Below are positions 28,168 to 64,000 of a DNA stretch of 64,000 nucleotides, piece after piece (the stretch's first letter is position 1; each line of letters starts with the position of its first letter). The stretch covers positions 372,001-436,000 of the forward strand of contig CANTFK010000766.1 of assembly GCA_947646735.1 (NCBI GenBank). Reading direction: 5' to 3'. The stretch comes from Peronospora farinosa. Its lineage: Eukaryota; Oomycota; Peronosporomycetes; Peronosporales; Peronosporaceae. The translations under genes and the position numbers were made by a program. A model generated the notes under the pieces. The model searched no databases. It was not told where the DNA came from and worked only from the letters and a program-made list of their open reading frames with translations.

Positions 28168-28508
28168 TGTAATGGGCTACATTACACACATAGTATTACA
28201 CAAATAAACAATTACATATGTAGGCAGGTGCTGGGCCCGAATAGCGGGCACAGCGTGGTAATTTATTATTGGTTCATTATTGGGCCTAAAGTCCCCAATA
28301 TGGACCAATGATAAATCAACCTGAAATTGTGTGGTTCCCGAAAGGCAGGAACACTGTCGTATTTATTACGACTAAAATCTTCGTAATTAGTACGAATTAA
28401 AACCAAAATAAAAATCAGAGTTAAATTTACTTAATACCTAATACTTGGGCTTGAGTCTTCCTCAAGCGCACGTGTAAGCTAGTGACGGTACGTTCTAGCC
28501 CCGTTACA
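28168..28508 (+). repeat. Element B 5' LTR
   Basis: 341 bp, starts TGTAATGGG and ends CCCCGTTACA with TGTAA/TTACA terminal inverted repeats. About 98% identical to the copy at 34241-34581. Confidence 0.97.
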
Positions 28509-31220: not shown

Positions 31221-33090
31221 ATGTGCAATGTGTGTATCGCTGAACTTAACTCGGGTTACACCCGAGCCGTTTTATTTGATGAGATCGTCGCAGCGTACAA
31301 GAGTGACTCAGATTATGCAGACATTATCGAGTATCTGCGTGCTCCCAGCGATGCTGCACTGGGAGCATTATACCTTACCAAGCGCGGCCATATTCATCGA
31401 TACAGTTTAGATGGCGATTTGCTTCGGTATAGCATCGACCAATTCGATTTTTCTCGCACGGTGATGAATAATGACATGGATTTGCGTGCAAGAATCATTC
31501 ACGAGTATCACGATGCTCCTGCTGGCGGCCATTTAGGTCGCGAAAAGACTTTCGCGGCTGTGTCTCGAGACTTCTTCTGGCCCCATATGTATAAGTAGGT
31601 ACGCAACTGGATCCGAACGTGTGAAATATGCCAGCGTGTGAAGCCATCTCCATCGACACAGGCTCCCTTGCGATCGTTGCCAATTGAAGAAGAGGCCTGG
31701 AGGTCAGCTTCGATGGACTTTATCTTCAGGCTTGCGCCCGATAGCCAAGCTCGAACGGGCATCTTGGTCTTTGTTGACAGATTCAGCAAGATGACACATC
31801 TCGTGCCTGTTCACGCTAAGGTCACCGCGGCAGAGACCGCGGCGCACTTCATCGACGCGGTGTTCCGTCATCATGGCCTTTCAGAAAACATTGTTTCGGA
31901 CCGTGACCCGCGATTTACGTCCGCATTTTGGACGTCACTTTTCGAGCTCCTCGGGACAAAACTGCCGATGTCGATTGCAGCCCATCCGTTTCCGGATGGG
32001 CAGACCGAGCGCGTGAACCGGGTCCTCGAAGATGTTCTTCAAAGTTATGCTACGTCATTTACAAGTTGGAGTGCATTTTTACCACTCGCTGAGTTCGCAC
32101 TCAACAACGCCGTACACGCGTCAACAGGGTTGACGCCATTTTTTGTGAATTCGGCTCGTCACCCTCGTGTTCCTACTGTCCTGGCCGTGGGGCGACCCAT
32201 GGCTCCACTCTGGGGGGGATAAAGGTGATAAACCAAGATCGAGTGCAGCTCACGGTATTTTGAGCGCGAATGCAGTAACCCGATCCAAGGCAAAGACGGC
32301 CACTTTGACGCCATCAGACGTGGCGTCCCCATTAGCTCGAAGGACTGATCATACGTTGATTGACCCGTCTTCGGGTAAGCGCTCGCCTACTGCCAACTAC
32401 GCGCCGATTGAGTCGGCGCGACCAATTGATGACATGGCTGTGTCGGAATTTATACTCCAACGTCAAGCCATCACCCGGTTTGTACGCGACGCACTACAAT
32501 CTGCGGTAGATCAACAGAAGGAGAACGCTGACAAACATGGCAGAAAGAACATAAGCAAGTTTGAGAAAGGTGACCGTGTATTATTATCTACGGAAGGTTT
32601 AAGGGATTCAGCGGTCACTAATCTGGGCGCGTGTAAACTCGCGCCACGCTTCATCGGTCCATTAAAGGTTCTGAAGGCAATCGGCGACGCTTATACACTC
32701 GACGTATCCTCTTCACTGCGACTCCACCCGACATTCTATGTCAGGCGGCTGAAGAAATATCGTCCGGCTACGCTTCACGGTTTGGCTCCGACGCCGGCTT
32801 CAGGGGTTCGTAAGTCGAACGGCCTTCCCGTCGTGCTCGACGCGCCGATGACATGGGGCGGGGTTTCGATCCCGTCTGAACCTGACCAAGCACCTGGCGC
32901 TCCAGAACCCTTATCCGTTCGAGCAGTTCACGGTTCGACTGCCGGGTCTCACTCGAAGTCTTCTCCGCCCGGGCAGCACGTTCACTGGCAGCCTCAGCCT
33001 CCAGCCGAGCATCGGCAGCTATGTTCACGGCCTGATCAACATCGTCCTGAGCAACCAGGACCATCGCGAGGGCCCTCCTCCGCTTGTTGA
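31221..33090 (+). pseudogene. Element B integrase
   Basis: Zinc-binding N-terminus (HEYHDAPAGGHLG, then CEICQRVK), with an in-frame TAG at 31596-31598 between them. The catalytic core keeps the D-D-E residues: D in MDFIF, D in VSDRDPRF, and E in DGQTERVNRVLED. The frame shifts at about 32200, then the C-terminal beta-barrel region with FEKGDRVLLST and the GPxxV motif follows. Broken by one stop and one or two frameshifts. Confidence 0.92.
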
Positions 33091-33103
33091 CCCGGAGGGA
33101 CAG

Positions 33104-33700
33104 GTGCGTTGGATTGTAGACCGCATTGTGGGTCACGAGGACCCTCCACAACCAGTACTGCAGTCGGCTCATGAGAAGCGCGCGGTTCCGTCCGTGCGCA
33201 GGTACCGAGTATGTTGGATTGGATTCCCTCCCGAGCAGGATACATGGGAACCACGTTCCTCGCTCCTTCGTGACGTTCCAGATGTGGTTCTATCGTATGA
33301 AGCCACGAAGTCGGACTATTCCAAGGCGGGCGAGCACGCGAACGCTCTCGTGAAAAACGAGAGCGGTAAGGAGATCCACGTCGTCGGGAACGGGAACGAT
33401 GACGCGAACGAGAACGATGTCGCGAACGAAAACGATGCCGTGAACGAGAACGATGTCGCAAACGAGAACGATGCCGTGAACAAGAATGTCGCGGTGAATA
33501 CATATCACGATTGCGAGGCGAGAATCGCGCAGCAGGACGGGCAAGCGAACGTGTCGCTACCCTGCGCTGATGATACCGCGGAGATTGACTCCGCTGTCGT
33601 GAGTGGTGCTGCCAGCGAGGCGCACCACGAAAAACTGCGCTTCTCCGTTCGCTCAGACTTCGCTCATACTTTGCAATCAAACTTCGTTCGCGATCACTGA
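33104..33700 (+). pseudogene. Element B chromodomain and acidic tail
   Basis: A chromodomain (RWIVDRIVGHED, then YRVCWIGFPPEQDTWEP) follows the integrase after a one-base frame change near 33080, classifying the element as a chromovirus. The tail contains tandem NENDVA/NENDAV hexapeptides (18-base units, 33400-33485). Stop TGA at 33698-33700. Confidence 0.88.
33400..33485 (+). repeat. 18-base tandem repeat, read as NENDVA (sense) and Arg/Ser/His-rich (antisense)
   Basis: Four to five near-identical 18-base units (AACGAGAACGATGTCGCG type). The plus strand encodes NENDVA units; the minus strand in the antisense frame encodes RSRHRS-type repeats. Confidence 0.85.
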
Positions 33701-34227
33701 GTGGACACTCAGCGATGTGTCGTCGCCATTCGTCATGAGTTGGGCGTGGAGTTGAGTCACAAGATTGGCACATGGACGAAGCAGAGACGGTCCTCCTTCC
33801 AAGCATCCTCACACACTCTTTCGCGTAGCGCGCCGATGGAGTGATCGGCGCGAAGCTCCTCTCGATTGGCGAGCCATAATTAGAAGCTGCTACCATCCTT
33901 GAGCATCCGATTTTAACGTTGGATGAAGGCACACCAAGAACGTTGTAGAGCTTCATGCTCGATTCCATCAAGACCTTTCCCGCGCAATTTTCGAAATCGG
34001 CGGAAGTAGTCCCGCATCATGTCCAGCGAATCCGGAGCGTGAGCTCCCGACAAGTCGTATAGTGACCAAAGTATGAGCTGACGCGCCATGATGCTGGTTA
34101 ACGCACTCCCGCTGATGTTTCTTGGGAGTGCTGTTGGATTGGGTATTGGGTCTCCGGACATTGCTTGTTCGTTTGTGGGCGAAGTATTTTCGACAGTTGA
34201 GCACTCACGGTTGGTGAGCGCTGTCAT

Positions 34228-34240: not shown

Positions 34241-34581
34241 TGTAATGGGCTACATTACACATATAGCATTAACACAAATAAACAATTACATATGTAGGCA
34301 GGTGCTGGGCCCGAATAGCGGGCACAGCGTGGTAATTTATTATTGGTTCATTATTGGGCCTAAAGTCCCCAATATGGACCAATGATAAATCAACCTGAAA
34401 TTGTGTGGTTCCCGAAAGGCAGGAACACTGTCGTATTTATTACGACTAAAATCTTCGTAATTAGTACGAATTAAACCAAAATAAAAATCAGAGTTAAATT
34501 TACTTAATACCTAATACTTGGGCTTGAGTCTTCCTCGAGCGCGTGTGTAAGCTAGTGACGGTACGTTCTATCCCCGTTACA
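34241..34581 (+). repeat. Element B 3' LTR
   Basis: 341 bp, same ends as the 5' copy. Confidence 0.97.
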
Positions 34582-38452: not shown

Positions 38453-38457
38453 GTCCG
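38453..38457 (+). repeat. Target-site duplication of element C, left copy (GTCCG)
   Basis: Identical to 46029-46033. Confidence 0.92.
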
Positions 38458-39098: not shown

Positions 39099-39208
39099 CT
39101 CTCCCCACCAGACTGACGTTCCCATAGAATGTCATTCGACACCTTTCCTCTTTTGAGGTAGAGCTTTAGCGAACGTTTAAGCCTTACGGTTTGTTCACGG
39201 CACACAAC

Positions 39209-40492
39209 ATGACGCCTCCTGGCAATGAGTCACAGACTCTACGGGACCTCATTGAAGGAGACCTTGACGAAGCGGTTGATTACGAACGTGACACAGTCTT
39301 TGTGGGACCCGATGGGTCCCCTTTAGTCACCCTCACGGGTGAAGATGACATTAGTCATGCACCGAATCCGTTCCCTGAACGTGGTGCTGCAGATGCGCTA
39401 ACAGCGTTACGTTACCCGCCTGACGTATCGTCAACGGCGACGGTTACTAACCCACTAGAAGAACAACAGCAGCCGACCATTGATCAAGAGGAAGGCGCCA
39501 AGCGCTGGACGAAGAATATGGCTAGGCTTCAAAGCCACCGACAGTGTAATCTCAAGCCACCTACTGTGGAAGAACGCCTTAAGGAGGCATCTGGTCATTC
39601 CCTCTCTGGATGGGCCATTGGGACGGAGGCCATTTCACCAGAGGATATCGCTACGCGAACGGCTCTTCGACAACGCTATCTGGAACCCCATATCACTACG
39701 CAAAGCCAATACTTGGCACGCCTTAACAGGCAAGTGCGCGGTGCACCAGTACCTCCTATAAAGGGTGTTTCCATTCTTCTATTCGCGAGAGAAACCGAGG
39801 AGGAAGAGGGTACGACTTTTAGCCACCGGGCTCATCATGCGCGACGTTTAAGCAGCATGTGGGCTCTACGGACAAGAGCCGACGTGGCAGATGTTCGTCT
39901 CAAACGGAAAATGCTTTAAGATTACGCTAAACTGAAGGCCCGAGGAAAATTGAAGTCTCAACAAACGCAATATGCGTCTGCTACCCAGCACTCCAATGTA
40001 TCGTCTACACCTGTAGCCTCCAGTTCACTACAGGCCAAGGCCGCTAACTCGCCTATCCTCACCACTACTGGTGAGAAGCGCCATCGCCAACAGGTTGGCC
40101 CTGCGCACGACGTTCAAAGAAGTTCACGGCGTACGGGCAATCCTTCCGAAGGGGAACATCGGTTTCCCATGAATTCCACGACTCGGGATATCCCCGCCAC
40201 TTCACCAGATACTGGTTTCGACCGTGGCGGCGACGCTTCTGCAGAAGAATATCTACATGGAACTGAAGGTTCCCCTGTCCATCAAGCAATGCCCGAGGGG
40301 CCCGGTGTACCGGCACAATCTCATGCCGAACTCCTTCAAGAGGTGAAGTGGCTTTGTGAGACTGTGCAGAAGATGAATGCCCGCTTCGAGTCGCTGGAGC
40401 AGAGCCGAACCCGTGTGGAGGGACAGCTTGACCTCTTGGTTAAAATGATACGTCGTGAGGCAGTGCCTATGAGCTCGGCGCGAGCGCCTTAG
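39209..40492 (+). pseudogene. Element C antisense gene, one in-frame stop
   Basis: Plus-strand frame opposite to pol, starting 110 bp inside the 3' LTR. It runs 39209-40492 (about 427 codons) with a single TAA at 39917-39919. Element E has a Tyr codon at the matching place, so the stop is probably a recent nonsense mutation. The N-terminal half is acidic, the middle (WTKNMARL, LKEASGHSLSGWAIG) helical, and the C-terminus is a coiled coil (HAELLQEVKWLCETVQKM). It overlaps the chromodomain frame (40065-40316) on the other strand. No sequence similarity to the B/D antisense protein is obvious, but position, direction and C-terminal coiled coil agree. Function unknown. Confidence 0.7.
40065..40316 (-). 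pseudogene. Element C chromodomain
   Basis: Minus-strand frame with a clear chromodomain (NQYLVKWRGYPESWNSWE) and the closing FFERRAQ. Intact over this stretch but not in frame with the integrase. Confidence 0.88.
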
Positions 40493-43623: not shown

Positions 43624-44418
43624 TTAAAGTACTTGGGATACCTTCATCCCAAGGCCAATCGATTCCTTGGCCTTAATCTTCTCTATACGAGAGCTGATGT
43701 CATAATCAACATTCAGTGAGTCCCTATCACAGGTGACATCACTAACAAGGTCATCGACCTTTACTTGCCATATACAAGAGCCGATGTCATTACCGACATC
43801 CAGTGTCTCAATATTAATATGAGTATCACTTAACGGAGTACGTGCCATTCCACTTAGTGTCACTGAGCTCTGCTCGACACTATTATTGTTGACATCGGAG
43901 TTTATCAACTCAGACACTCCAATGTCCAGCACACTAACTGAATCAGTTAATGGCTCGCGCCAATAGCACTTTTGTTTCTTAGCGAAGGTGGGTTCATGAC
44001 TCTCCAAAGCTTCGCTAGGAACATTGCGCGTTGCGCCTAAAGTTTTGGATCTCCAATCGATCCACGGCTCATGGCGTTCCAGCCAGGCCATACCGAAAAT
44101 GAGATCATATCTCGAGTCAAAATCTAGGACAAGACAGCGTTCAACGCTATTGAAGTCTAAGAACTTCACACCTAAATTCAACGAAACTTTAGGAGCGGTG
44201 ACACGTACACCTGTTGTGAGACGAACGGTTATGCTGTCACCCTCTTGCGCTTTTAGCGCCTCAGCATACAGCTGACTCCCTTCAAGGGAACGAAGTCGTA
44301 GATAATTACCCGACGCCCCTGAGTCAGTTAGAATTGACCATGGCTTCTCAAAGCCTTTAACGATTGCCGACACAACCAACAAGCCTGGCTTGTAATCTTG
44401 TTCTATGGGAGCATCCAC
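43624..44418 (-). pseudogene. Element C protease and linker
   Basis: 264 open codons. Retropepsin motif ILTDSGASGNYLR at residues ~29-41 with a downstream LIFGMAWLERH, so the active site appears intact. The remainder is an uncharacterised linker before the RT. Confidence 0.85.
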
Positions 44419-44984: not shown

Positions 44985-45002
44985 ACTACAAGTGCTACCA
45001 AG
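44985..45002 (-). promoter_or_regulatory. Element C primer-binding site
   Basis: On the minus strand, TTGGTAGCACTTGTAGTC follows the end of the 5' LTR, nearly identical to the site of element B. Confidence 0.78.
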
Positions 45003-46028
45003 TGTAGCGGAGATACACAGCGCTTTAGTCAGAGGAATACTTTTAGGCTGAAAGCCTCTTAGTTCTATAGAACTAATCAAAGTTGACGGCTAAATCCACT
45101 TAGTTCTCAGGAACTAATTAAACGACTTAAATGTCACCCTGTTTTAAGGAACTAGGAAAGAAATTTTTAGTCTGCAAGCAATAAGCTTAAGGTTCAGAGA
45201 ACCGACGCAAGAAAAAGCTAGAAGCTTAGAGGTTCAGAGAATCAACGCACGAAGTGCACAAGAGAACAAGTCAGAGGTACTTACGATCTAAAACTCAAAA
45301 TGAGAACTGATTTTGTAATGGGGCACCCTACGACTATACTGATAACAGTATAGTCTACCTTCACTGATGACAGTAAAAGCAGTGTGCCACAAAACCTTTC
45401 TTACACATGAGGCAGACGAAGCTTTACTTCTAGACGACACGCTAGAAGTAGAGGAAAAGAGAACTGTATTTAATATAGTTAACTATCTTAATAAAACTAA
45501 TCTGTTATAACCTATGTTAACTATATTAAACTACAACTATGTATGTTGACAACTTGCCCTCCACTCATTGCGCGCGTCCATTGGTCATGCTCAGCGCGTT
45601 GGTTGATATGATGGCCCATATCAACCAATTAGAGGGCATCTCCAACTTCAAAGAGATTTAGGGACTATATTATAGGGAAAGATAATATTGTCAAATATTA
45701 TTAGTTATAATATATTTTTATTGACACTTCATATAAGTGTCAATATTATGTAACGAGCTCACCCCGTTACAATTTTTTACGCATTAAGATTTTATGAATA
45801 GTTTTACTCTAAGTACCTTACATTGAATTAATTACTATAACAGTTATTATAATATGCAGACGTTGTTATTGGACGATGTATCGTCTAAACATCTGTGTAT
45901 GATGTACTTAGTAGTACTAAGTTTTCGGTTACTAACTTAGTACAGCGTTCTCGATTTCGAATCCTAAAGGGATTCTTCAACCGAAAACTTTTGGAATAAT
46001 ATTACAAGCGTCGTGTAACCCCGTTACA
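45003..46028 (-). repeat. Element C 5' LTR (right), interrupted
   Basis: 1026 bp in total, of which 45314-45771 is a nested solo LTR. The two outer parts match the left LTR, including the direct repeats around GCTTAAGGTTCAGAGAACC. Confidence 0.9.
45314..45771. repeat. Nested hairpin-rich solo LTR
   Basis: 458 bp starting TGTAATGGGG and ending CCCCGTTACA, absent from the matching place in the left LTR of element C. Flanked by ATTT on both sides (a possible 4-base duplication; a fifth base differs). It contains at least six perfect inverted repeats (45332/45346, 45426/45442, 45469/45516, 45599/45617, 45683/45694, 45721/45735). No coding capacity. Orientation uncertain. Confidence 0.8.
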
Positions 46029-49923: not shown

Positions 49924-51528
49924 TTAAGTACTAGGTATAACTAGTCCTCGGACAGCCGAGCGTCGTCGCGCAGAGTCTTGTCTCGAGATGATCAGGTTCC
50001 GTGGCGTCATAGCGGGTCCCTGAGGTTCGTAGTTGTCGGCTTGAGAGGCCTCCAGCCAGTGGTTGACATCATGGTCAAGGAATGCCGAAGCCTCCTTGAC
50101 AACACCTTCCTCAGCGGAAGCGTGCACTTGAATTGAGGCTCCAGTGTCCATAGCGATATTTGCCAGTCGTTCCGCCATTTTGTTGTATGAGCGATAGTGA
50201 TGTCCCCAGCTGGAGACATCGATATCGTCAGCAAGTGCTCTTGCCTCTCGGAAAAGAAGGGCCAGGTGTGGCTTGCGTGGAGGATGGTGCGTCCGAAGCT
50301 GCGAAAGGACGAGCGCACTGTTCCCCACGACATGGAGAGGTGAGTAGCCGCTAACCTTCGCTTGTCGAAGCCCGTGCACGAGCCCCCAGTATTCAGCGAC
50401 ATTGTTCGTGGTATTTGCAGAACCGTAAGCCATGCTCGATACCCACACGACGCATGCTGCGTGCGTCTGAATGTGAAGTTGGACAATGACGGAACCTGCT
50501 CCGCCCGGTCCAGGATTTCCTCTTGACCCCCCGTCGAAGAAGAGCAGGTAAAAAAACCCAGATAGAGTGTCAAGCGGCAGCGCTCGCAAGGGTGGAGGAT
50601 TGTCAAAGCCGATGAGGGTATCAGCAAGCGCCGACCGTACTCGTGCGAATAGGTATCCGTCTACCCCCATGTCCGACTGATATGTTGAACTTCGAAACCG
50701 TGTAACCGCTCGTCGAAATTGTGTCCTTGCTCTTGCGTCGTGTACTTCCTGTGGCAAAAGTGAGTCTTCCAAGCGGCGGAGACGCTCAGCCCAGATGGAA
50801 TGTAGTGTCGTAGAAACGAGAAAACGCCAGAGCTCACGCGTTGCTGGAAAAACGGCGTCCTTCGCTCGAGACAAATCTACACTGGGTTCGATAGCGTTTT
50901 TAATGGCATTCCATGCAGAACTCGGAATACTCGGAAGGTCCATCCCAAACACCCAGACGTGAAGGTCCGCCTCCTCCAAATCGCCTAGCTTTCGCCACCG
51001 TTCAAGTAGATAACCCCAATGACGCCGAGCGCTAGGGCAATTCCAGAATACATGACTAGCCATGGCCAGTAAGGATGTCGGACACGCTGGGTCGGGGCAA
51101 GATAGATCTTGGTTAGCCCAATTCCATAGCGGGAAGCTGTTACTCTTCAGACGATAAAGCGTCTGCGCGTTGGTCGGGAAAGAAGCCCGTATTTTACGGA
51201 TGTCTCTCCACTCGATCAGAGATGTACCTGCTGCAATCACTTGGAAGTCCGGCTTCTTCACGCGTTCGTCGCAAATGCGTTTGCCTTCATCACTTCGCCT
51301 GCGGGAAATGATCTTTTTGAATTTTCGTCGTTGCGGCCTCCATCTTCGACGGACAGCCCATAGGTGTACAACACGCGTAAGCGTTGGATGCGCACCAAGT
51401 GGACAGTAATTCCACTGTCCAGACACGCTGCGGTATCGCAAGCAGCCATAGATGAGACTGTAGCCACCCCACCCGCTATACCCGTGTCGAAGTGCGATAC
51501 CGATGTACCGTCTCGGTCGAGGAGCCAA
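49924..51528 (-). pseudogene. LINE ORF2, C-terminal part with RNase H
   Basis: 534 open codons. The first ~70 are out-of-frame shadow. A zinc region (CPDPACPTSL...HVFWNCPSA) follows, then RNase H with FFDGGSRGNPGPGG and NNVAEYWGLVHGL. Two positions usually Asp read otherwise: GNS in VVGNSALVL, and E in YNKMAERLAN. That suggests a weakened RNase H. Confidence 0.85.
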
Positions 51529-52340
51529 GTATGATATTGGTGGACCTTTGTCGAGTACGCCAACAATGCCCCCGATTCAAACGACCTGTATACGAGTGCT
51601 GGAAAATTGTATAGAAGGGCAAGGCAGAAGTTCCCAAAATGCCGACGCTTCGCCATAGAGTGGGTAGCCATGTCACGCTTGGGCGAAAATCGGACGATAC
51701 CACTCTGAGTCGTCTTCCAGGTGAATATGTCGCCAAGGTACTTGTGCCCCCTCGAAAAATCCGCTCCATTCAAAGTATAAGCCTTGCCTCTGCGATCCCT
51801 CAGCCACGACATGTCCGTCAGCGTTGCGTGTACGATCCATCTGGGTTCAAAACGACCTGATGTCGCTACTTCAGCTCTCATCCCGGCCCGCAACCTGTCA
51901 TCAAGTATACGGCGGACATCAATTGTGACACTACCGTCTCCATTATAGTCGATTAAGGCTCTTGATGAAAAAGAGGCGGCCCTTCGGCAGACCTCCTGGA
52001 CCTCTCCTTGACGGGCATGTCGAGCAGCTGAAAGCCCAACAATTTTAGAACCGGTTAACCATAGCGTCACTTGGAGTCGAGGCTCCTGGTCTTGGGTCCA
52101 ACATGGCGTGATGTAAGCCGGACCCGAATCAGTAGAGCCCCATAGAAAGTCTCCGATCAGTAAATCTTTCGAAGAAGCTGTAGCTGCCCACTGTCCAACA
52201 GCGGTTGCCGCCATAGTCATTAATTCCGTACGAATACACGGCACCGATAGCCCACCTTGCTGTATCGGTAGTGAAGCCATCTCTGAAGGGACCCACGGTC
52301 GGGACCTCTTGCCATCATGGACGCCCCATACAAAGTCCAT
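51258..52340 (-). pseudogene. LINE ORF2, connector part
   Basis: 360 open codons after the RT thumb. Contains WVPSEMASLPIQQGGLSVPC, typical of the region after RT in LINE ORF2; the frame shifts at both ends (about 52330 and 51300). Confidence 0.8.
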
Positions 52341-53373
52341 AATTAAGCCCTTTCAATCTATTAATCATGGCGGGAGGTGGCCAGCAGTGCCGTGCTAAGT
52401 AGGTAATTTTAGGCACCGCGATGGCGCTAGCGATGCGAGCTCGTTGTTCCACCGTATGAGTCTTCTCTCGTGCTAGTGCAAGTCGACACCATAGAGATCG
52501 TATGCATTTACACCAGTTGTCAGCTACCGCATCCTGTTGGCCAACAAGTACACCAAGATACCTGCATGATCCGCTTGAAGACTGTACATTGAGGCCACAC
52601 TCGTCCAAGGGCAAAGATGATCCGCGAGGGTCAAGCTCAATGATAATAGACTTCGCTCGATTCGTTAGCAGACCGGAAACAGCTGCAAAGTCTTCGAGGA
52701 TCGTAATAACAGGCAAAACCGCAGACCGATCGCGAAGATAAACCGCCGTGTCGTCAGCGTATCCCGAAATTTTAATGTCAGTGGTTCTCCCCCCAGAAGT
52801 AAGAGGTATCCCGCGGATTTCATCCCTCTCTTGAATCACTCGATAGAAACTATCCAAGGAGAGTATAAAAAGAAGAGGAGCAAGAGAGCACCCTTGCCGT
52901 ATGCCGCAGTGAACGTCACGTCTGCTTGAACGGTACCCATTCACAATAAATCGACATGTCGTGTTTCGGTGTAATGCCGCCACGACTGCTACGAATTTTG
53001 GCGAGAAGCCATGCCAAGTCAACGCCGAAAGTAGAAACAGACGTTGCAACGTGTCGTATGCCGTGGAGAAATCGAGAAGAAGAACAATGGATCCGTGTAG
53101 ATCGCTGTCAGCACTCGCCGCTTTGCGAACCGCCGAAAAAATGTCAAGAGCTGTATGGATCGACCGCTTCGGGACAAAACCAACTTGAGCTGGCAGAACA
53201 ATATGCGACAGCATCGGCCGAACTCGAAACGAAAGGATCTTTGTAAATAACTTGTAGTCACTGTTGAGAAGCGCGATCGGCCGATGATCAAGAGGCAAGG
53301 CGGAAGCCGCGGTTTTCTTCAGACACTGAATGTTCGCTTCACCAAAAGACGTCGGAAACACGCTGCACTCCAT
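52315..53373 (-). pseudogene. LINE ORF2, reverse transcriptase
   Basis: 352 open codons of LINE-type RT: RPIALLNSDYKLFTKIL, AQVGFVPKRSIHTALD, LLLDFSTAYDTLQR, GIRQGCSLAPLLF and the catalytic GYADDTAVY (near 52750). The catalytic box is intact. The frame differs from the upstream endonuclease, with a shift between about 53370 and 53600. Confidence 0.93.
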
Positions 53374-53606
53374 CCATCTAGTGTACAGTGCTGCGAGAAT
53401 TGGCGCGAGCGCGTCAGCATAATCACGGTAAAAGGTGTTGTTGATTTCATCTGGTCCTGCGGCTTTCCCACGTTAAAGTCTCTTCAAAGCCGCACACACA
53501 TCTTCAGGAGATATAGCTGACGTCACATTAGAGTCATCAATCCGGACCGGTGTGGAGGCTCGTTCCAGAAATGCAGCGGTAGCATCTGGACAATCAAAAA
53601 ATTGAG

Positions 53607-55262
53607 TCATAGATGCTCCCAGCCGTCTGCCATTTCATTTGCCAATTCCTGCGACCGATTCGACCCGTATGTAGCTTGTCCACCCAAAGAAACGATAGTG
53701 TTGTCCTGAAATTTTGTCGACACCCGCGCGAAGAAACGACGAGAAGTCTCGCCTGGAGAGTATGTGTGCTGGACAAGAAGTCGCTCTTTCTTGGTTCTCT
53801 GCCATAATCGTCGACACTCCGCAACGTTTCGACGAAGTTCCGCAGGATTATCGACGGGGCTGGGTTGGTCGCATATCGTTTGAGCACACGCTATTGAGGT
53901 AGCTGACGAGCGCGCCTCCAATAGCGCCGCATCCAGACGGACATAGAGGCGCTTCAGCCGCTGTCTGTAGCTGCGCGTCAGACCTTGGCGGGCTGTCTTT
54001 GTAGTCGCCACAAGAACTTTGCGTAACTTGATCTTCCATCCATCCCACCAGTCGGCCAATCGTCTAGCCGTTCGATAGTCCGACGTCGGAACTGAGCTGG
54101 ATTCATCAACTTCAATCTGTGCCAGCTCAATGGCCTAAATAATGGCGCTGGTCGCGGCCGCTTGTGCACAGCCCGGCACTGGATATACGCGCCGTGGCTT
54201 ACGTACGCGCACAACATGACTTGGTGCCCCAATCCGTATACTGATTCCATTGTGGTCAGCGGCTGGGCCAGGTACAGACAGATCGACGTCTCGAACCCAA
54301 TCAGCATGAAGAGCACTCACGTACCACCGATCAAGTCGAGAACTGGCTGATCCACCTTCAGGCAAATTGTAGAAATAGGTGTGTGCCGCCGCATGAAAGG
54401 CTGCTAAGGCCCTCTCTTCTTCCGCTCGCTCCATGTCATCTTCGAGTACATCGCAAAGTTGTGCGCGACCTAGAAGCCGTCTCAGCGCCTGCGAATCATG
54501 TCTGCCGGGCGGCGAGACAAAAGATCGGTCAAGTCGAGGCACCAATGTGCAGTTAAAATCCCCGCCCACGAACAAGGGTCCGTCGTGATCCAGCAGGTGA
54601 TGGCGAAGCATCTCGAAAAACGCTTCCCGTTCAGGCTTACCACTCAGGGCGTATACGTTGACAACAAGAACTGTCTCGCTTCGAATATTAATTTGAACAG
54701 CCATCCAGTGCGGTGTCCAATGTATCTCATGCCACGGTTCCATCTCAGTAATCGACGAGTACGGATTCAGTAAAATCGCAACCCCTCCACGCGCTGCTTC
54801 GGACTCGGTCCATCGAGTGCGTCCGGGCTTGTCCACGAAGCCGTATGTGGTGTTGTACAACTTGTTTAGACTTGCTGCTTCACCAACAGAGACCCGCGTT
54901 TCTTGTAATAGGACCAAGTCGATAGCACCCCGTGATTCGCGCTGCCTAAAATGGCCAAACCATTCTGCACAGCGTTCCGGATGCTTGGGGAATCCCGCGA
55001 AATTTTGTGAATGCAGACCGATGCTGTTTTCGCGTGGCTTTTGAGAAGTCTTCAACATGCCCCGATGACGACGTCGAAGTGTATCTGCCCTTGGAAGGTG
55101 AAAGGAAGAAGACTCAACCCTGTCTAGCGATCTAAGTCCCCCTACAGAATATGGAAAAGAGGGACTGGGATTCGCCCCCACTACCGAATCAGCCCCTTGC
55201 GCAGCCGAGGTGCCCTCAGTACTGAAGGTCCAGCAGCTGACCATCGCGGGCAATAAGGTCAA
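53607..55262 (-). pseudogene. LINE ORF2, APE-type endonuclease
   Basis: 55262-54135 carries the endonuclease motifs: VLLQETR, GGDFNC, SRLDRWYVS and ADHNGI. A TAG at 54135-54137 is followed in the same frame by the linker to RT down to 53607. The start overlaps the end of ORF1 by about 47 bases in another frame, as is common for LINE ORF2. Confidence 0.92.
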
Positions 55263-58200
55263 TCGCCGGCTGCCAGTTGGCAGGTTTGCATAAAATGCTG
55301 GATACAGCCGCGCGCACCTCTTTAGAGAGGTGGTATAATGCCGCTTTGGACTGTGGCATCACCACCTTTGTCTCATCCTCGACAGGTGCAAGATGAGATA
55401 GCAATACACACAGGACATTGAGGACGCCTCATTGATCCAAGTCCGGAAGCGGTTCCACGACAGTCGCGCACAGCAACTCCGGCTGTAATTTGCGGAATTT
55501 TCTCCAGCGCGTTATGTTGTCCGTCGTCTTCCATCGAATTTTCCCAGACTGACCTTCTGCCGTTGCAGCCCAACCCGTACACAGCTCTCGAAGCTTTTCA
55601 TCAGCGTGTGTGGTATGTTGGCGTATCACAGACAATTGAGACTCGCTGTTGATAGAATGTCCAAAGGTTTGGAGGGATTCCCTCGACATCGAGGCGAGGT
55701 AAGCAATTGGGTGCGGCAGGTCACTGACAAGTGCCGCCAATTCCAATGCACACGCTTTAATCCATGCGGATTGACCCTTTGGACCAACTGGCAGTGTAGT
55801 GGGTACCGCAGAAACCACTTTGCGCTAGGAAACCCATCTATGAATCGCAGCAGTGTTCGCCGAAATCTGTTTCGTGCCCTCCGGCACAGCGGCGGCCGCT
55901 ACTGCAGCCGATGCAGTGTCAGGCACCTTGCGCACTCTAGTTGCACGTAACGTCTGATCGTGAGTATCTTGAGTGCGGATGAAATACATCGGGGATCTAA
56001 GTGCCACCTGTTTACTCGATACCTCATTAGAGCCAATGGGTCGTGTCAGCAGACCGTAAGTGCCCATGGCTGGGTCAGCTATATTTCCTGAGTAGGCCTT
56101 GAGCTCGTCTTTAATAGCTTTAGCTAGCTCCGCTGGTATAGGGACACTGGCGGCGCATGGGGGAGGCGTTACGGCCCCTCCATCAATAATATCCATGCGC
56201 ATGGTATTTCCAAACGTAGATTTGATTACCGCCATACTTACATCGAGATCATGGTGTTCCAAGTAGTCCGGGTCCTGGGGGCATGTCGGAGAAATTTCCA
56301 ATGGAGCCGAATCAGGTGATGCAACCCCAGGTGGGACCGCACCCGGTACTGCCTTGGTCGTCACACTTGGCATGCTCCGTTTGCGGCGAACATAAGACGA
56401 CAACATTCGCTGTATCGTCGCGCGACCTCTTTCCCTAATTTTCTCTGCCGTCGCAGCTGGCATCTCGCTCGGCGGTGGGACAACCCCCTTAACCGCATGC
56501 TCGATCTCGGGCGTCTCTTTCGGTGTAATTTTTGTCAAGCGGCGTGTCAATTTTAGTAGTTTGTTCGTGGCCGTTGCTGCTGCTGTCTCCGCTCTGTTTG
56601 CCTCTGCACCAGCGGTGCGATATTTGTACTCCAATGTAGGCAAGTCACCATTCACATCGTCGAGAGCTGTATCAAGGTCGAGACCTGTAGCTTCGCGATC
56701 AATAGCTAATTCCAACGCATGAGCGTGAGCCTCGAAGTAGCAAGCTTTCTTATTTTCGGCATTGAACTTCTTTTTTGCAGCGGTTGAAGTCAGTAGTTCG
56801 ACTGTGCGTTGTGCGTCCGCAACTTGAGATTGAGCCACCGCTAAAGCCGTAACCTTGGATGACTTCTCAGACGTAGAAAGAACTGCAACAGTGTCCGTTG
56901 CCTGATTTGCCGTAGAAGCCGTTTGATCACCTCCGATCAGGTGGTCCAGTTCAGCTACCGCCTGCGCACGCTGCTTAGTAGCCTTGGTAGTGGCGGCTGA
57001 TGTCACGGAATAAGTGGCCGCGGGTGCTCTTCCTTTCGTAGAAACTGCTGGCTTAGTAGGTGAGGAAGGTTTCGTAGCCACTTTAACCGAGTTCGTCGCG
57101 CTCTGCTTGGCGAAAGATGCCGACCCTTGGGTCGACGACTTGCTGGTCCCCTCAGCTGCTTTTGACCTCGGACGTCGTAGCGGTGTAGCATTAGAAGTCG
57201 CCGCTTGAGTAGTTGAAGCCGCGTTGGGACGCGAGTCCCGCTTTTTCTTGTTCGCACCTGGGTCAAACCACCCGTCAGTAGTAGGACCAGCGGCACGTGG
57301 GGCATCGCCACTCGCCGCTGGCTGTCCACGGGGAGAAGAGGGGGGTGTATCCTCCCTTGGACAGTCTCTCGAAAAATTCTGTGAGATCTTGGTTAACAGT
57401 GGTGCCTTGCAAGCTTCATCCTTCAGCTTGGCCGTAGTTGCCTGTAATGTCTCTGCCAGGCCGGCGACATGCTGCAGGCGCTCGTTCACATCGAGGTGCT
57501 GAAAAGTCAAGACGCTGACTGTTTTGGCAACATGGTGAGTACCGATGAATTCGCGGTGATGCTCAAATAAGAAACCGCCCCTGCTGGCGGCGCATTTTGC
57601 ACTTAAATGATACGGCGAATAACAAGAAAAACAGGGGACCCGTTGGAAATGACGATGATGATGAATAAAAAGTGTCGTGTTGGGAGTCTTGATGTGTGTC
57701 ACCAACTTGATCTCTTCGGGACATGAAACGGTATTAAAGGTAGCGACAAAGAAGTTGAAATCGTACGCCTCTGTCCCATTCAGAAACCCCCGAACCACCG
57801 ACGTCACCGAGCATGACACACTCGACGAGAGGATAGCTTGGACAGTGCTCGCGGCCACGCCATGAACCAAAATTCTCACTTGATACTGCAGAATGTTGCG
57901 ACTTGAAGTAGTACTGGACGTCAATGAAGTAGTGATGTCATCCCTCTCCATGGTTGCTGGACACAATAGTTGAAGGCGAGTACCACGAAATGAAATGAAT
58001 TTTGTATGCCAGCTCGCCGCAGCCGCCTGGTCAGGCAGAATAAAGGTGAGGCGTCGAGTGTCCGAATTGTAACACGTGCGCTTTGCCCCCTTGACTAGCT
58101 CCCGACTAAGTGGATCGGAAGTCGTCTCCCCTTCGCGGCGTTCCAGCAGTTGTAGGAGCAACGTTTTCTCAGCAATATGCTGAGGCATACGGACGGAAGG

Positions 58201-58737
58201 AGGCACAAGCGCGATGACCTTGCCTTCAAGGTATTCCTCAAAAAAATCAAGCATCGCAACCCGCGTGGCTCTTGGGTGCGTGCATACCAAAAAACCGGGC
58301 GGTGACGGAAGTACAATGCCTCCCATCAACCAAGCTGCGAGCGCCTCCTCCTCAAGTGGAATCATTGGACGCAGATCATCATCCACCTTATCAATCCAAG
58401 GTCTCGAAGCTGTGCGCACCAGTAAAGCACGTCGGTCTTGCGACCCACCGACCTCCGCCGGAGTCGAGGCGCTGTGGTAGACGGGGCCTTTTCTGTTGCC
58501 AAGGCTGGTAGGTTCGCCAGGGTCGTTTTTTCCGCCGGGTCCGTTAGGTACGCCGGGGTCGATACATTCGTCGGGGTCGATGCGGTTGCCGAGGCCGTTG
58601 ACCGCAGTCGCGAACGAGACCCGACCAGCCGCCGCTGGCCCAGGACCAGGCACTTGTTTCCAATGCACTTGTGCACCTTGGCTCTTAAGTGGTGAAGGAG
58701 CATCGCCCAGCGGCACATCGCCGTCGTCAGAGTTCAT
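55216..58737 (-). pseudogene. LINE ORF1, two internal stops
   Basis: 970 open codons (58737-55825), then TAG at 55825-55827, another open stretch to 55429, a stop, and a last stretch to 55216, all in one frame. The N-terminus is Pro/Gly-rich. A Cys/His box CFSCYSPYHLSAKC (C-x2-C-x4-H-x4-C) lies near residues 365-385. The rest is Ala/Thr/Lys-rich with coiled-coil potential (~residues 600-760). Nucleic-acid-binding ORF1 protein. Confidence 0.85.
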
Positions 58738-59679: not shown

Positions 59680-61469
59680 GGAAGATCTTCATTGATCTTA
59701 TCTTTAGGCATCACGGCTTGCCAGAATCTATTGTTTCGGACCGTGACCCGCGTTTCACTTCGGCTTTCTGGGCAGAATTATTCCAGCTATTAGGCGCGCG
59801 GTTGCTTATGTCTACGGCGGCCCATCCAGAGACGGATGGGCAAACGGAGCGTGTGAACAGAGTGCTCGAAGATGTCTTGCGCAGTTATGCAACATCGTTC
59901 TCATCATGGAGTTCATTTCTTCCAGTTGCAGAGTTTGCAATCAACAATCCTGTCCATGCGTCAACCGGGTTGACCCTCTTCTTCGTGAACAACGCGAGGC
60001 ATCCTCGCGTTCCGGCGCTTCTTACTCTCTCAGCTGCTGAACACCCTGTCTCCAAGCTTGGTGGGGGAGTATCTACGGATGGAATTGCGCCGAAACTATT
60101 GCTGAGTGATTACGATGCGCATAAGGTTGCTGCCGATGCACCTACTACTGGTAATTTTGTGGCCACCGGCATATCGACTCCTGACGCGATGCTTTCCATC
60201 GCGTCTTCCGTTGCCAATTTTTCTCCACAAGAGAATACGTCGCCTGTAAGTTCGGCTGCAGTAACCGAATTTCTACTATTACGCCAAGCAATCACGCGTT
60301 TTGTGCACGATGAATTACAAGAGGTAGTCGATAATCAAAAGGCGAATGCATACAGAAGAGGTCGAAAGAATATGTTGATATTTCGAGAAGGTGACAGAGT
60401 ATTATTATCAACAAGTGGATTACCGAACACCTCAGTGACAAATTTGGGCGCTAATAAGTCAGCGCCAAGATATATTGGCCCATTTCGGGTTGTTAAGTTG
60501 CATGGTGACGCTTACACGCTAGACATACCTACATCTATGCGTTTGCACCCGACGTTCTATGTCGGGCGCCTCAAGGCTTACCTGCCGGCGGATCTCCCTT
60601 CGAATCTTCCCCGCTCTTCTGTGCCGGCTCGAAATCCGACATCCCTTGACGACGACGTTGACGACGACTGGGACCAAGTCCTGCCCGAACGCGTGCAGAC
60701 TCGACCTGATGGGGTCCTCCGAACGCAGTCGTCTCAAGCTGACGTAGGCGCTCAACCAGTACCAGCCGCTCACGTCTAGTCCGCTCAGCAACCTCAGTCG
60801 CAGCATCCGCACGATCTTGAGCTCTCTCAGCCATCTCGCGAGCATAAAGTAGGGCATTCTTCGACTCCTCGTCTTCAGCGCGGAGTAGGCGCAGCTCATC
60901 ATTCGACTGTACAGGCGCCCGATTACGAGAATCGGCGCTCATCGCCAGAGGCCTTCCGTCGTGATGCTCCTCCTCCATTAGTCGATGCATCGGGTGCGCG
61001 ACGCTGGATTGTCGACCGGATTGTCGATCACGAGGATCACAAGTCCCAGGCGCCGAGTAATAACTCGGCGCCCATGAAGAAGCATGTCGAGAAACATTAC
61101 AGGGCTCGCTGGCTGGGATATTCCCCGGCGGACGATACATGGGAGCCATCGAGTACGCTGTCCCAAGATGTCCCGGACGTGGTCGAGGACTACGAGTCCC
61201 GTAGAAAGACGGTGATCGCGACCGACGCTGACGGTTCCATCCCCGATCTCGCGGGCCGTAATGCTCGCGAGCAACGAAACCGCGACGACCTCCCGAGCGA
61301 CTCCGAGACCAAGACCTATTACGAGGCTCGGGAGCATATGGATGATACGGTTGACGACCTCGGCTACGTGAATGCCGTCGGCGATCGTAAGGACGCGCTC
61401 TCACTCGCCGTAGCTCAGACACCTGGAGCTCCGAAAGTCTTCTCTCATAACGGGCAATCCATGGACTAA
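59680..61469 (+). pseudogene. Element D integrase C-terminal half and chromodomain
   Basis: Integrase core from FIDLIFRHHG: D in VSDRDPRF and E in DGQTERVNRVLED are present, while the first Asp is lost with the truncation. Then come the C-terminal domain (FREGDRVLLST) and, after one in-frame TAG at 60777-60779, a linker and chromodomain (RWIVDRIVDHED, RARWLGYSPADDTWEP). Apart from that TAG the frame is open from the host gene to 61469. Confidence 0.9.
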
Positions 61470-61977
61470 TATGGTCGGGCATGCCTCGCGCACACACTAA
61501 GTCGTCCCATTCCTGCCGGACCGGTCGCGATCTGCCCACGTTACACGTTGAACATCCCTCACGGATGTGGACGTAACAAAGGTGATACTCGTCACAAGTC
61601 ATACGACAGATGCGCCGGCGCAGGTCGCCAATAGCGTGTCTATCACGCGTTCCCTCGCGACCGTCTAACCAGGACGTGAAGGACGTTCCTTCACGTCGGC
61701 TCGCGTTCCAGCGCCTGATGAAGGCACACCAAGACCTCTGCAACGCATCGTCGGTATATGCGTTGTTCGTCGCCTTGCCTCTCACTGTACGGTATCGCGT
61801 GAAAAGGTCCTTCATGACCTCCAGTGGCTCGGGTTCGACAGCACCTTCAAGACCATACAAGCGCCACGGTTTCAAGTCCCCATCCATGACCTGCGGCGCC
61901 TGCTCTCTACTGATTGTCGCTTGGTGTTCCCAGTTCTGGCTGTCAGAGACATTTTTTCGTGGACGCCTAGTGTCCAT
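60571..61977 (-). CDS. Element D antisense gene: 468-aa Arg/Ser-rich coiled-coil protein
   Basis: Uninterrupted minus-strand frame opposite to pol, starting at ATG 61977, about 112 bp inside the 3' LTR. Residues 1-95 include ALQRSWCAFIRRW. About 100-190 include AIGDLRRRICRM, LCYVHI and CSTC, followed by WIARYERRLSEL. Residues ~190-310 are Arg/Ser/Tyr-rich (SRSRSGGRR). Residues ~340-420 are a coiled coil (EMAERAQDRADAATEVAERT). The same order is seen in the decayed copy of element B. It overlaps the sense chromodomain and integrase tail for about 900 bp, and both strands stay open. No known domain. An Arg/Ser-rich plus coiled-coil layout suggests RNA binding or assembly, which is inference. 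Confidence 0.7.
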   Translation of the reverse strand: MDTRRPRKNVSDSQNWEHQATISREQAPQVMDGDLKPWRLYGLEGAVEPEPLEVMKDLFTRYRTVRGKATNNAYTDDALQRSWCAFIRRWNASRREGTSFTSWLDGREGTRDRHAIGDLRRRICRMTCDEYHLCYVHIREGCSTCNVGRSRPVRQEWDDLVCARGMPDHISPWIARYERRLSELQVSELRRVRARPYDRRRHSRSRGRQPYHPYAPEPRNRSWSRSRSGGRRGFVAREHYGPRDRGWNRQRRSRSPSFYGTRSPRPRPGHLGTAYSMAPMYRPPGNIPASEPCNVSRHASSWAPSYYSAPGTCDPRDRQSGRQSSVAHPMHRLMEEEHHDGRPLAMSADSRNRAPVQSNDELRLLRAEDEESKNALLYAREMAERAQDRADAATEVAERTRRERLVLVERLRQLETTAFGGPHQVESARVRAGLGPSRRQRRRQGMSDFEPAQKSGEDSKGDPPAGKP

Positions 61978-62089
61978 GCTGCTCAGTTAAGTCTAACTGA
62001 GCAGGTTCGGAGTTACGCCGTTGGTCGAGAAGAAACCTTCTGCGATTCGCGCTTACGTTGAGGTAAGCGCAACTTAAAGAGGAGGGCGA

Positions 62090-62407
62090 TGTAATGGGTT
62101 TGCGTATTACATTAGTAGTTATAGGATTAATACATAATTACATAAGTAGGCATAGGGCATTATCCGATTAGCGGATACTGCGCGTCATTTTATTATTGGT
62201 TTATTATTGGGGAGCCAGACCCAATAATTAGCCAATAATAAATTGACTTCCATATTGAGTGGTTCCCATGAGCTAGGGAACATATTCGCACTTACTGCGA
62301 ATCCAAACAAAACAAAAATAAAACAGAGTTATATTTACGAATTAATGAAGAGCGCTTCCTCAACGCCCTTCTAGTGTATGACGGTAACGGGTTCTTAGCC
62401 CGTTACA
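62090..62407 (+). repeat. Element D 3' LTR
   Basis: 318 bp, TGTAATGGGT...GCCCGTTACA. Reverse-complement match to the solo LTR at 35215-35531. Confidence 0.93.
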
Positions 62408-63770
62408 CTCACCCCATTCGGCAGCACCGCTGGCTAGTTTGCCTATTCCCACTGGGTGCTGGGAGTCCATTAGTATGTACTTTGTAGTTGGCCTACCGAA
62501 AGATTCGCATGGCAATACAGGTATTGCGGTCTTTGTTGACCGTTTGAGCAAAATGGCTAACTTAGCGGCTGTGCCAGACTCGATCGATGGTGTGGGTACA
62601 TCGGAGCTGTTTATCAATCGAGTGTTTCGCCAACATGGCTTGCCAGTGGCAATTGTTTCTGATCGTGATCCTCGTTTTCACGAGTAAATTTTGAAAGTCC
62701 GTCTTCCAGGTGCTAGGCACCCGTTTGAACATGTCCACAGCGGATCATCCGCAGACCGATGGTTAAACTGAACGCGTAAATCGCGTTGTTGAAGATATCC
62801 TCCGCAGCGTTTGTGCTAAAACGCCAAAGCGTTGGAACTCTATGCTCCCTGTTGTTGAGTTTGCACTCAATAACTCCGTGCACGCCTCTACCGGCTACAC
62901 TCCGTTCTATGTGAATGGTCTCACGCACCCACGCGTTTCGTTAACGCTACCACCGAGTGGTTCAGGGCTTGGTGGGAGAGAGGTTGCCGATCGGCTTGCT
63001 GATGTCAGTCCCTAATACTGTTAAGAAACAGGTAAATGCGTTTCTCGCAACGCGACTAAATGTCTTACGACATGTGCGTGACGCAATGGCTGATAGCCAA
63101 GACAAACAGAAGAAATATGCGGATGCTAAAGGCAGAAGTTGCATTGATTATTATGAGGTCGGAGACCAAGTCTTACATAATGCTAAAAACCTACCTACCA
63201 ATGTAGTACCCGCTGTCTTTAAGACGAAGTTGCGCCCGCGATTTATTGGACTCTTTAAGGTCATTGCCAAGAAAGGCACAGCGTATACGCTTAACTTGCC
63301 GCGCAAATTGCGCACACATCCTGTGTTCTATGTCGGCATGCTCAAAAGGTGTCGGGATCCGTCCCAAGTAAACATTAAGGCGGTCGCGCCGAGCCCATTG
63401 GCATTGTCGCGGGACGAATCATCTGCACCAACAGGTAAAGCTGACCCTGCATTCGGGTCCGACTCTCTCCAGGGACTCAAGCCGGGAGTTCATCGTCTGC
63501 CTCTCCTCACGAAGGGACCGCACCTCTTGAACAAGCTCGGCATGAGCTTTTGCCGATACACCGGCCTCTTCCGGCTTTGCTCGATGCGCAGGGGAACCTA
63601 CAGTTCCATGTGGAGCGTCTACTGTAGAAGCGTCGCCGCCATGGTCAAAACCAGTATCTGGTAAAGTGGCGGGGTTATTCCGAATCGTGGAACTCATGGG
63701 AGTTTGAGACTCCCCTTCGGCAGGACTGCCCATACGCCGTGGACGTTTTTGAGCGTCGTGCGCAGGGGTC
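62408..63770 (+). pseudogene. Element E integrase and chromodomain
   Basis: Core at 62439-62687 reads SMYFVVGLPKDS where element C has the catalytic Asp, so the first Asp is replaced. The second D (VSDRDPRF) and the E (TERVNRVVED) are present; a stop replaces the Gln codon just before TERVN. The frame changes at about 62685 and near 62960. The C-terminal domain is open at 62957-63664, and the chromodomain (NQYLVKWRGYSESWNSWE) continues in another frame with a TAG just before it. Confidence 0.88.
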
Positions 63771-64000
63771 AGCCTGTTGGCGCTGACGCTTCTCACCAGT
63801 AATGGTGGGCGTGGGCGGGTTAGCGGCCTCAGCCTGTCGTGGACCCGCGGCTACAGGTGTAACCGGAACATTGGGATGCTGGGTAGCAGGCGCACAATGC
63901 GCTCGTTGGGATTTCAATTTTCCCCGGGCCTTCAATTTAGCGTAATCGTAACGCATCTTCCGCTCGAGTCGAACATCTGCCACATCGGCACTTGCCCGTA
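63419..64000 (-). pseudogene. Element E antisense gene, 5' cut by window edge
   Basis: Minus-strand frame homologous to the plus-strand antisense frame of element C. The upstream part (64000-63675) is open through the window edge and contains MRYDYAKLKARGKLKSQ. A frameshift near 63700-63790 leads into 63796-63419, which has the C-terminal coiled coil (HAELVQEVRSLREERQTM). It overlaps the chromodomain on the other strand. Its start lies outside the window. Confidence 0.65.

What the first reader, a model, noticed from the sequence alone, without database searches (positions are those of the whole stretch)
60571..61977. Intact antisense gene in a chromodomain retrotransposon, overlapping pol on the opposite strand
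Seen: a 468-codon minus-strand frame with no stop begins at ATG 61977, 112 bp inside the 3' LTR of element D. It overlaps the sense integrase/chromodomain frame (to 61469) for about 900 bp. Its homologue in element B is broken but aligns in order. Its first ~170 codons (61470-61977) and the matching B region (33701-34227) lie beyond the end of sense pol, so the similarity there (LQRSWCAFI, AIGDLRRRIC versus SIGALRERVC, LCYVHI versus LCFVHV) cannot come from sense coding. Differences are conservative. Known: antisense frames have been described in some plant Ty3/gypsy lineages; I know of none described for oomycete chromoviruses. Inference: this is an accessory protein gene, probably driven from an antisense promoter in or near the 3' LTR.
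Basis: partly seen in the sequence, partly recalled or inferred. Interest (0 to 1): 0.87.

Follow-up and report, generated by a model that had tools for sequence, protein, structure and literature searches.

The report
Conserved backwards gene overlapping retrotransposon pol
A mobile element in what is likely a downy-mildew genome carries a second protein gene written backwards across the end of its own integrase-chromodomain gene; the protein has relatives in Phytophthora and Peronospora and its codons show selection, and it would likely act as a nuclear regulator of the element.

Summary
In detail: a 468-codon minus-strand frame (60571-61977) starts 112 bp inboard of the 3' LTR of a chromodomain Ty3/gypsy element and runs back across the end of pol. 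It is a real gene family: 39 other copies at 93-99% DNA identity, a divergent second family of element B's kind, and protein relatives in Peronospora destructor and nine Phytophthora species. Among copies, shared differences favour synonymous antisense changes where no sense coding exists (p=0.004) and inside the overlap (p=0.010); the sense frame shows no such signal in the overlap (p=0.30) but a strong one in integrase. Sense-synonymous recoding almost never leaves the antisense frame open. Correction: pol usually reads on to about 61631, so only codons 1-115 are free of sense coding. The protein is predicted to be a helical Cys-bearing domain, an Arg/Ser-rich stretch and a coiled coil. A second, unrelated antisense gene sits in the same slot of element C. 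Antisense retrotransposon genes are known in plants and Botrytis; five searches listed no paper on one in an oomycete. Expression and function are untested.

The parts
60571..61977 (-). antisense ORF, 468 aa
   Evidence: copies; protein relatives
61632..61977 (-). codons 1-115, free of sense coding in the D family
   Evidence: sense frame open to antisense offset 347 in 23 of 30 D loci; the next codon is TAG in L010
61384..61890 (-). N-terminal predicted helical domain (residues 30-198)
   Evidence: AlphaFold2 mean pLDDT 83.4; conserved W/R/C columns
61543..61608 (-). conserved cysteines C124, C134, C142, C145 (candidate metal site)
   Evidence: columns; motif in 34 of 59 proteins (57 database entries, the window, L058); a number of those without it are shortened or frame-shifted models
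60943..61386 (-). Arg/Ser-rich, predicted disordered region (residues 198-345), opposite the chromodomain
60721..60903 (-). predicted coiled coil (residues 359-419), opposite the integrase-chromodomain linker
   Evidence: one long helix, block pLDDT 78-92 over 361-420
60390..60581 (+). sense integrase C-terminal SH3 (Tf2-1 type)
   Evidence: Pfam PF24626
61005..61202 (+). sense chromodomain
   Evidence: Pfam PF00385
60777..60779 (+). stop in the window copy's sense frame
61467..61469 (+). second stop in the window copy's sense frame; sense open there in 23 of 30 D loci
61981..62002 (.). 22-bp inverted repeat GCTCAGTTA-4-TAACTGAGC just upstream of the antisense ATG
   Evidence: exact in 21 of 30 D loci L009-L038
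62090..62407 (+). 3' LTR of element D
   Evidence: read; boundaries by analogy with element B's LTR pair
32768..34227 (-). homologous antisense gene of element B, broken by frame changes
28168..28508 (+). 5' LTR of element B
34241..34581 (+). 3' LTR of element B
39191..40492 (+). second, unrelated antisense gene, in element C (which runs on the minus strand); broken near 39920-39950 in this copy
40068..40316 (-). sense chromodomain of element C, opposite that antisense gene
   Evidence: Pfam PF00385 E 3.8e-11
63422..63983 (-). copy of the second antisense gene in the element at the right edge, C-terminal part, frame broken

Best explanation
The frame is a protein-coding accessory gene of a chromodomain Ty3/gypsy retrotransposon, read antisense from beside the 3' LTR back across the chromodomain and the integrase-chromodomain linker, and its product is likely a nuclear, nucleic-acid-binding regulator of the element, predicted to be made from an antisense transcript that would start in the 3' LTR. 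Shown here: the open frame, its copies, its conservation as a protein in two genera, and codon-level selection on the antisense frame both outside and inside the overlap. Inferred: the N-terminal helical Cys-bearing domain is the specific part, the Arg/Ser-rich stretch binds RNA or chromatin and carries the protein to the nucleus, and the coiled coil makes it a dimer, so that the protein acts in trans on the element's own RNA or its transcription, much as antisense HBZ does for HTLV-1 or as Grande's nuclear gene23 protein is thought to do. Also inferred: the C-terminal half arose by overprinting of the weakly constrained linker of pol.
For: Copies: 40 places including the window, the other 39 at 93-99% DNA identity (only the best candidates were scored); 29 of 60 examined loci keep an antisense frame of at least 440 codons from stop to stop (11 of 30 D, 18 of 30 B; these loci were picked by protein score), and five keep the whole antisense frame and pol open together across the fetched stretch (L010, L012, L013, L058, L064). 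Conservation: 57 database proteins, four without a named organism, the rest from Peronospora destructor and nine Phytophthora species; full-length members share the order Cys domain, Arg/Ser stretch, coiled coil, basic C-terminal motif. Frame test D versus B: antisense wins in codons 1-115 (203 against 107 for the next frame), 116-180 (148/55) and 361-468 (114 against 61 for the next frame and 42 for the pol frame); the pol frame wins over codons 181-300, opposite the chromodomain (141/77). Codon positions 1,2,3 of D-B identity, codons 31-180: 0.57, 0.63, 0.35. Selection (26 D and 28 B copies): shared against singleton nonsynonymous:synonymous, sense-free part 46:38 against 180:72, p=0.004; overlap, antisense 124:71 against 422:158, p=0.010; overlap, sense 142:53 against 435:145, p=0.30; integrase 98:110 against 535:229, p=1e-9. 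Null by synonymous recoding of pol. Structure; composition. Some relatives' gene models slip into the frame complementary to the chromodomain and match the window's complementary frame there (7 of 57 proteins, E 2e-6 to 3e-3 in a 57-protein database), so the antisense layout probably holds in Phytophthora too.
Against: No transcript, promoter or protein evidence. Many copies are broken: of the 24 places matched over all 468 residues, 17 hold one or more stops. Pairwise dN/dS within families is noisy (anti-only pN/pS 0.29 to 2.1 on very few changes), and between families dS is saturated. Taken alone, the D anti-only test is p=0.09 and the B overlap antisense test p=0.15, where B's sense frame does slightly better (0.051). 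The antisense frame is weak over codons 181-300 (77 against 141), and over codons 301-468 taken whole it beats the pol frame only narrowly (146 against 129). Loci were chosen by antisense protein score; flat singletons (84/82/86 by codon position) argue against a bias but do not exclude it. No function follows from any family or fold match, so the role rests on composition and analogy.
Confidence: 0.6

Rival explanations
1. The protein is real but works in the particle or the pre-integration complex (a second nucleocapsid-like RNA chaperone, or a partner of integrase-chromodomain in nuclear import or targeting), not as a regulator of expression.
For: Strongly basic Arg/Ser-rich middle (richest 100 residues 29-36% Arg in nine of the ten proteins examined, 26% in the tenth) and coiled coil; the gene lies opposite the integrase tail and chromodomain, so it travels with them.
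Against: The sense strand already has a Gag (PF03732 in element B); expression from a separate antisense RNA would give no fixed ratio to Gag-Pol (reasoning, not tested).
Confidence: 0.22
2. Antisense RNA is what matters (double-stranded RNA or small-RNA control of the element) and the open frame is secondary.
For: Antisense RNA control is discussed for other elements (review PMC7264820, parts 1-2 of 3 read); small RNAs that match transposable elements are reported in Phytophthora infestans (PMC3522703, search listing only: title and start of abstract).
Against: An RNA function does not explain codon-position selection in the sense-free part (pos3 41 of 84, p=0.0024) or protein conservation between families at 34-36% identity.
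Confidence: 0.07
3. The frame is a by-product of sense coding and base composition, kept open because pol is conserved.
For: A GC-rich sense frame can give long antisense frames; other open antisense stretches lie in the same DNA (127-aa and 119-aa minus frames).
Against: 346 bp (D) and about 530-610 bp (B) of the gene have no sense coding yet hold much of the best conserved part; synonymous recoding of pol leaves about 6 antisense stops on average; over codons 361-468, opposite the linker, the antisense frame is better conserved than the pol frame (114 against 42).
Confidence: 0.04
4. A host gene captured by the element, on its way to a host role.
For: Named database entries are annotated as hypothetical or unnamed proteins in Phytophthora and Peronospora.
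Against: Many copies in the genome, member counts up to 26 per database cluster, and no Pfam family for the window protein.
Confidence: 0.05

Closest known systems
Antisense additional ORFs of plant LTR-retrotransposons (maize Grande gene23, rice RIRE2, Silene Retand)
   Same: Antisense gene beside the 3' LTR, kept in most copies and in several species; Grande's product is nuclear and has its own promoter (PMC7264820, parts 1-2 of 3 read)
   Different: Those are described as lying between pol and the 3' LTR; here about three quarters of the gene overlaps pol. No TRP28 domain found; host group differs
Boty-like elements of Botrytis cinerea, antisense gene brtn
   Same: Antisense gene in an LTR element of a non-plant (PMC7264820; passages of PMC8365987)
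   Different: Original paper not seen, so overlap with pol and protein similarity were not compared; fungus, not oomycete
HTLV-1 HBZ
   Same: Antisense gene transcribed from the 3' LTR; trans-acting protein that lowers sense expression (passages of PMC10186651); basic leucine zipper (from a reference title there, otherwise recalled), compare the coiled coil here
   Different: No bZIP match in Pfam; here an N-terminal Cys domain and a long Arg/Ser stretch; retrotransposon, not retrovirus; transcript not shown
Oomycete chromodomain elements (Chronos) and chromoviruses
   Same: Pol ends integrase-chromodomain (Chronos from passages of PMC5348765)
   Different: The term 'antisense' does not occur in the main text of the Chronos paper; lineage of our elements not settled, as no RT tree was made

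Membership tests
Antisense additional ORF (aORF-3R) of LTR-retrotransposons | Antisense to gag-pol, starting next to the 3' LTR | tested here: met
Antisense additional ORF (aORF-3R) of LTR-retrotransposons | Lies in the spacer between pol and the 3' LTR | tested here: not met
   only codons 1-115 (D) or about the first 180-202 codons (B, L058, by choice of ATG) lie beyond the pol stop; the rest overlaps pol. So it works like an aORF-3R but is a pol-overlapping variant
Antisense additional ORF (aORF-3R) of LTR-retrotransposons | Present in many copies with conservation like other element proteins | tested here: met
   shared/singleton odds ratio 0.48 (sense-free part) against 0.38 for integrase. 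Intactness in copies chosen without regard to the protein was not measured
Antisense additional ORF (aORF-3R) of LTR-retrotransposons | Own antisense transcript and promoter | not testable with these tools
   no RNA data held
Retand TRP28 antisense proteins | TRP28 domain (PF04195) | tested here: not met
   no Pfam family at E up to 1 for the window protein
HBZ-like antisense retroviral protein | bZIP domain | tested here: not met
   no bZIP hit among Pfam matches; a coiled coil is predicted
HBZ-like antisense retroviral protein | Transcribed from the 3' LTR and represses or alters sense expression | not testable with these tools
   no RNA data held
Chronos | Second, archaeal-type RNase H before integrase | not tested
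   in the two long open sense frames scanned (L058, L010) Pfam saw integrase and chromodomain parts only; in element B it saw only a partial RT_RNaseH

The most novel reading that the evidence does not exclude
Oomycete chromodomain retrotransposons as a class carry a trans-acting antisense regulator overprinted on the integrase-chromodomain junction; the slot has been filled at least twice by proteins with unrelated N-terminal domains (the D/B type with a Cys-bearing helical domain and Arg/Ser stretch; the element C type with a different domain), in the same reading-frame phase and each with a coiled-coil end, a retrotransposon counterpart of the HBZ gene of HTLV-1.
Probability: 0.4. Interest if true: 0.8.

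Novelty: new variant of a known kind. Interest (0 to 1): 0.62.

Why it matters
Antisense genes in LTR elements are known, but those described lie in spacers and have no settled function. Here about 1 kb of retrotransposon DNA codes on both strands, and over the linker's far part the antisense frame is the better conserved one. The family spans two genera and some 200 matched places in this genome alone (106 and 96 matches, fragments included), so it gives enough natural variation to test overprinting statistically, and it offers a non-retroviral case of an antisense-encoded protein like HBZ. Practically, relatives sit in Phytophthora gene sets as hypothetical proteins and should be checked against the repeat annotation.

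Full report
Observation. The window holds a minus-strand open frame of 468 codons, 60571-61977, starting with ATG. The 3' LTR reads 62090-62407, so the start lies 112 bp inboard of it. On the plus strand the same DNA carries the end of pol: the integrase SH3 part (60390-60581) and a chromodomain (61005-61202) by Pfam. The window copy of pol is dead: it has stops at 60777-60779 and 61467-61469, and its integrase core matches only the last part of the profile, so the antisense frame is the better kept of the two here.

Correction of the overlap. In 23 of the 30 D-type loci L009-L038 a sense stretch is open down to antisense offset 347, i.e. about window 61631 (in the other seven the stretch ends elsewhere). 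The family overlap is therefore about 1.06 kb, and only codons 1-115 are free of sense coding. In B-type copies the sense frame ends earlier relative to the antisense gene, so about 600 bp from the upstream ATG is sense-free in L058. Codons 116-180, overlapped in D but hardly in B, are well conserved between the two families in the antisense frame (44% identity; score 148 against 55 for the next frame), so the overlap there was probably made by pol growing into the antisense gene.

Is it chance? Base composition alone gives 5e-8 for 468 open codons. The better null is pol itself: drawing synonymous codons for the overlapped part of pol by the element's own codon usage leaves on average 5.9 (L010, 352 codons) and 6.2 (L058, 278 codons) antisense stops; 0.1% and 0.07% of 3000 draws each have none.

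Copies and relatives. A DNA search of the window's own genome finds 40 places, the window included, the other 39 at 93-99% (only the best 40 candidates were scored). A protein search finds 106 matches, down to about 64% identity over long stretches, and a search with the relative P0010 finds a second large family, element B's kind (96 matches; DNA search). Many copies are broken: of 24 places matched over all 468 residues, 7 have no stop and 17 have one or more. Protein databases hold 57 relatives (P0001-P0057): Peronospora destructor (57% identity over 95%), Phytophthora fragariae, rubi, capsici, nicotianae, megakarya, idaei, cactorum, infestans and fragariaefolia, and four without a named organism. 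No named hit lies outside this downy mildew-Phytophthora group, though two of the three searches were capped. The names seen are hypothetical or unnamed protein. DNA of these relatives was not available; yet some of their gene models slip into the frame that is the direct complement of pol codons over the chromodomain, and that stretch matches the window's complementary frame (7 proteins, E 2e-6 to 3e-3 in a 57-protein database), which suggests that they too lie antisense to a chromodomain.

Selection. Variants found in two or more copies mostly arose in replicating elements; singletons arose mostly after insertion and serve as the neutral yardstick (assumption). In the sense-free part, shared variants are 46 nonsynonymous to 38 synonymous in the antisense frame, singletons 180 to 72 (p=0.004); third positions hold 41 of 84 shared variants (p=0.0024) and 86 of 252 singletons. 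In the overlap the antisense frame again shows constraint (124:71 against 422:158, p=0.010) and the sense frame does not (142:53 against 435:145, p=0.30). In integrase proper the sense frame shows it strongly (98:110 against 535:229, p=1e-9) (all; 26 D and 28 B copies). By chunk, sense third positions hold 41 of 161 shared variants over the pol tail and the linker (p=0.019 for a deficit; each chunk alone above 0.05), 14 of 28 over the chromodomain (p=0.05 for an excess) and 114 of 201 in integrase. Limits: copies are related, so sites are not fully independent; loci were picked by antisense protein score; single families taken alone are at p=0.03 to 0.15, apart from the D overlap (p=0.002), and in B's overlap the sense frame (p=0.051) does a little better than the antisense frame (0.15); within-family dN/dS values are noisy.

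Between families (D against B) the antisense frame scores best over codons 1-115, 116-180 and 361-468; the pol frame scores best over 181-300, opposite the chromodomain; over 301-468 taken whole the two are close (146 against 129).

The protein. Alignments show a conserved N-terminal domain (W, R and aromatic columns; cysteines 124, 134, 142, 145), a long Arg/Ser-rich stretch, a coiled coil and a short basic C-terminal motif. The Cys pattern is found in 34 of 59 proteins. AlphaFold2 gives a helical domain for residues 30-198 (mean pLDDT 83.4), low confidence (probable disorder) for 198-345, and a long helix at 359-419. No Pfam family for the window protein and no convincing structural match (details under tried and rejected).

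How it most likely works. With 13 bp (element B) to 112 bp (D) between LTR and first ATG, an antisense messenger would have to start in the 3' LTR or in the short leader (inference). A basic, Arg/Ser-rich, probably dimeric protein with a Cys-bearing domain would be expected in the nucleus, on RNA or chromatin. The most economical role is regulation of the element's own RNA: splicing, export or transcription. Alternatives are a role in the particle or in integration. None of this was tested.

A second antisense gene. Element C (LTR pieces near 38457-38916 and 45002-45913; pol on the minus strand: protease 43627-44418, chromodomain 40068-40316) carries a plus-strand gene 39191-40492 beside its 3' LTR, and the element at the right edge carries a copy at 63422-63983. 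In the genome, 30 of the 150 places scored for its N-terminal part are listed with a 443-aa frame and no stop in the matched part. It shows no detectable homology to the D/B protein (N-terminal part only). Between the two window copies (79.6% identity) differences by antisense codon position are 3/1/7 in the N-terminal piece, 21/29/18 over 39950-40316 with the chromodomain, 16/7/19 over 40317-40492 opposite the linker, and 4/12/4 beyond the antisense gene. So the antisense frame looks like the conserved one over the linker, and the sense frame over the chromodomain and beyond. The phase of the overlap is the same as in D. Two copies, each with a broken antisense frame, are too few for a firm claim.

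Known kinds. A review of plant elements (PMC7264820, parts 1-2 of 3 read) lists antisense genes between pol and the 3' LTR in Grande, RIRE2, Retand and PvRetro13, and one in Botrytis Boty; Grande's product is nuclear. 97% of recently active Retand clusters have antisense ORFs with the TRP28 domain (PMC11963269, passages). The HTLV-1 antisense gene hbz is transcribed from the 3' LTR and its protein lowers sense expression (PMC10186651, passages). The paper on oomycete chromodomain elements (PMC5348765, passages) does not use the word antisense in its main text. My searches listed no paper whose title or abstract start describes such a gene in an oomycete; the library is open-licence only and most listed papers were not opened. 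Verdict: a real, conserved, pol-overlapping antisense gene; a new variant of a known kind; function open.

Noticed in passing
39191-40492 (+) and 63422-63983 (-): A second, unrelated antisense gene family in another chromodomain element, opposite its chromodomain and linker, with a coiled-coil-like end (by eye) and the same overlap phase; 30 of 150 scored places listed with a 443-aa frame and no stop in the match.
   Followed up: partly
61981-62002: A 22-bp inverted repeat (9-bp arms, 4-bp loop) lies three bases upstream of the antisense ATG; exact in 21 of 30 D loci. Could be a hairpin in an antisense leader or a protein site.
   Followed up: partly
33380-33500: In element B the sense tail after the chromodomain is an acidic Asn/Asp/Glu repeat whose other strand reads as the Arg/Ser repeat of the antisense protein; intact antisense frames of the B family differ in length.
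   Followed up: no
55825-58737 (-) and 49924-55262 (-): Large minus-strand frames that look, by eye and from recall, like a non-LTR element (endonuclease, reverse transcriptase, RNase H); the 970-aa frame would be its first ORF.
   Followed up: no
59687 region: The window copy of element D appears cut at its left side: DNA similarity to element B starts near 59687, and the plus frame before it, back to 58761, appears to be of other origin.
   Followed up: no
G000:C222:138990-141630: Three extra tandem copies, 414 bp apart, of the first 170 bases of the antisense gene lie beside one element copy.
   Followed up: no
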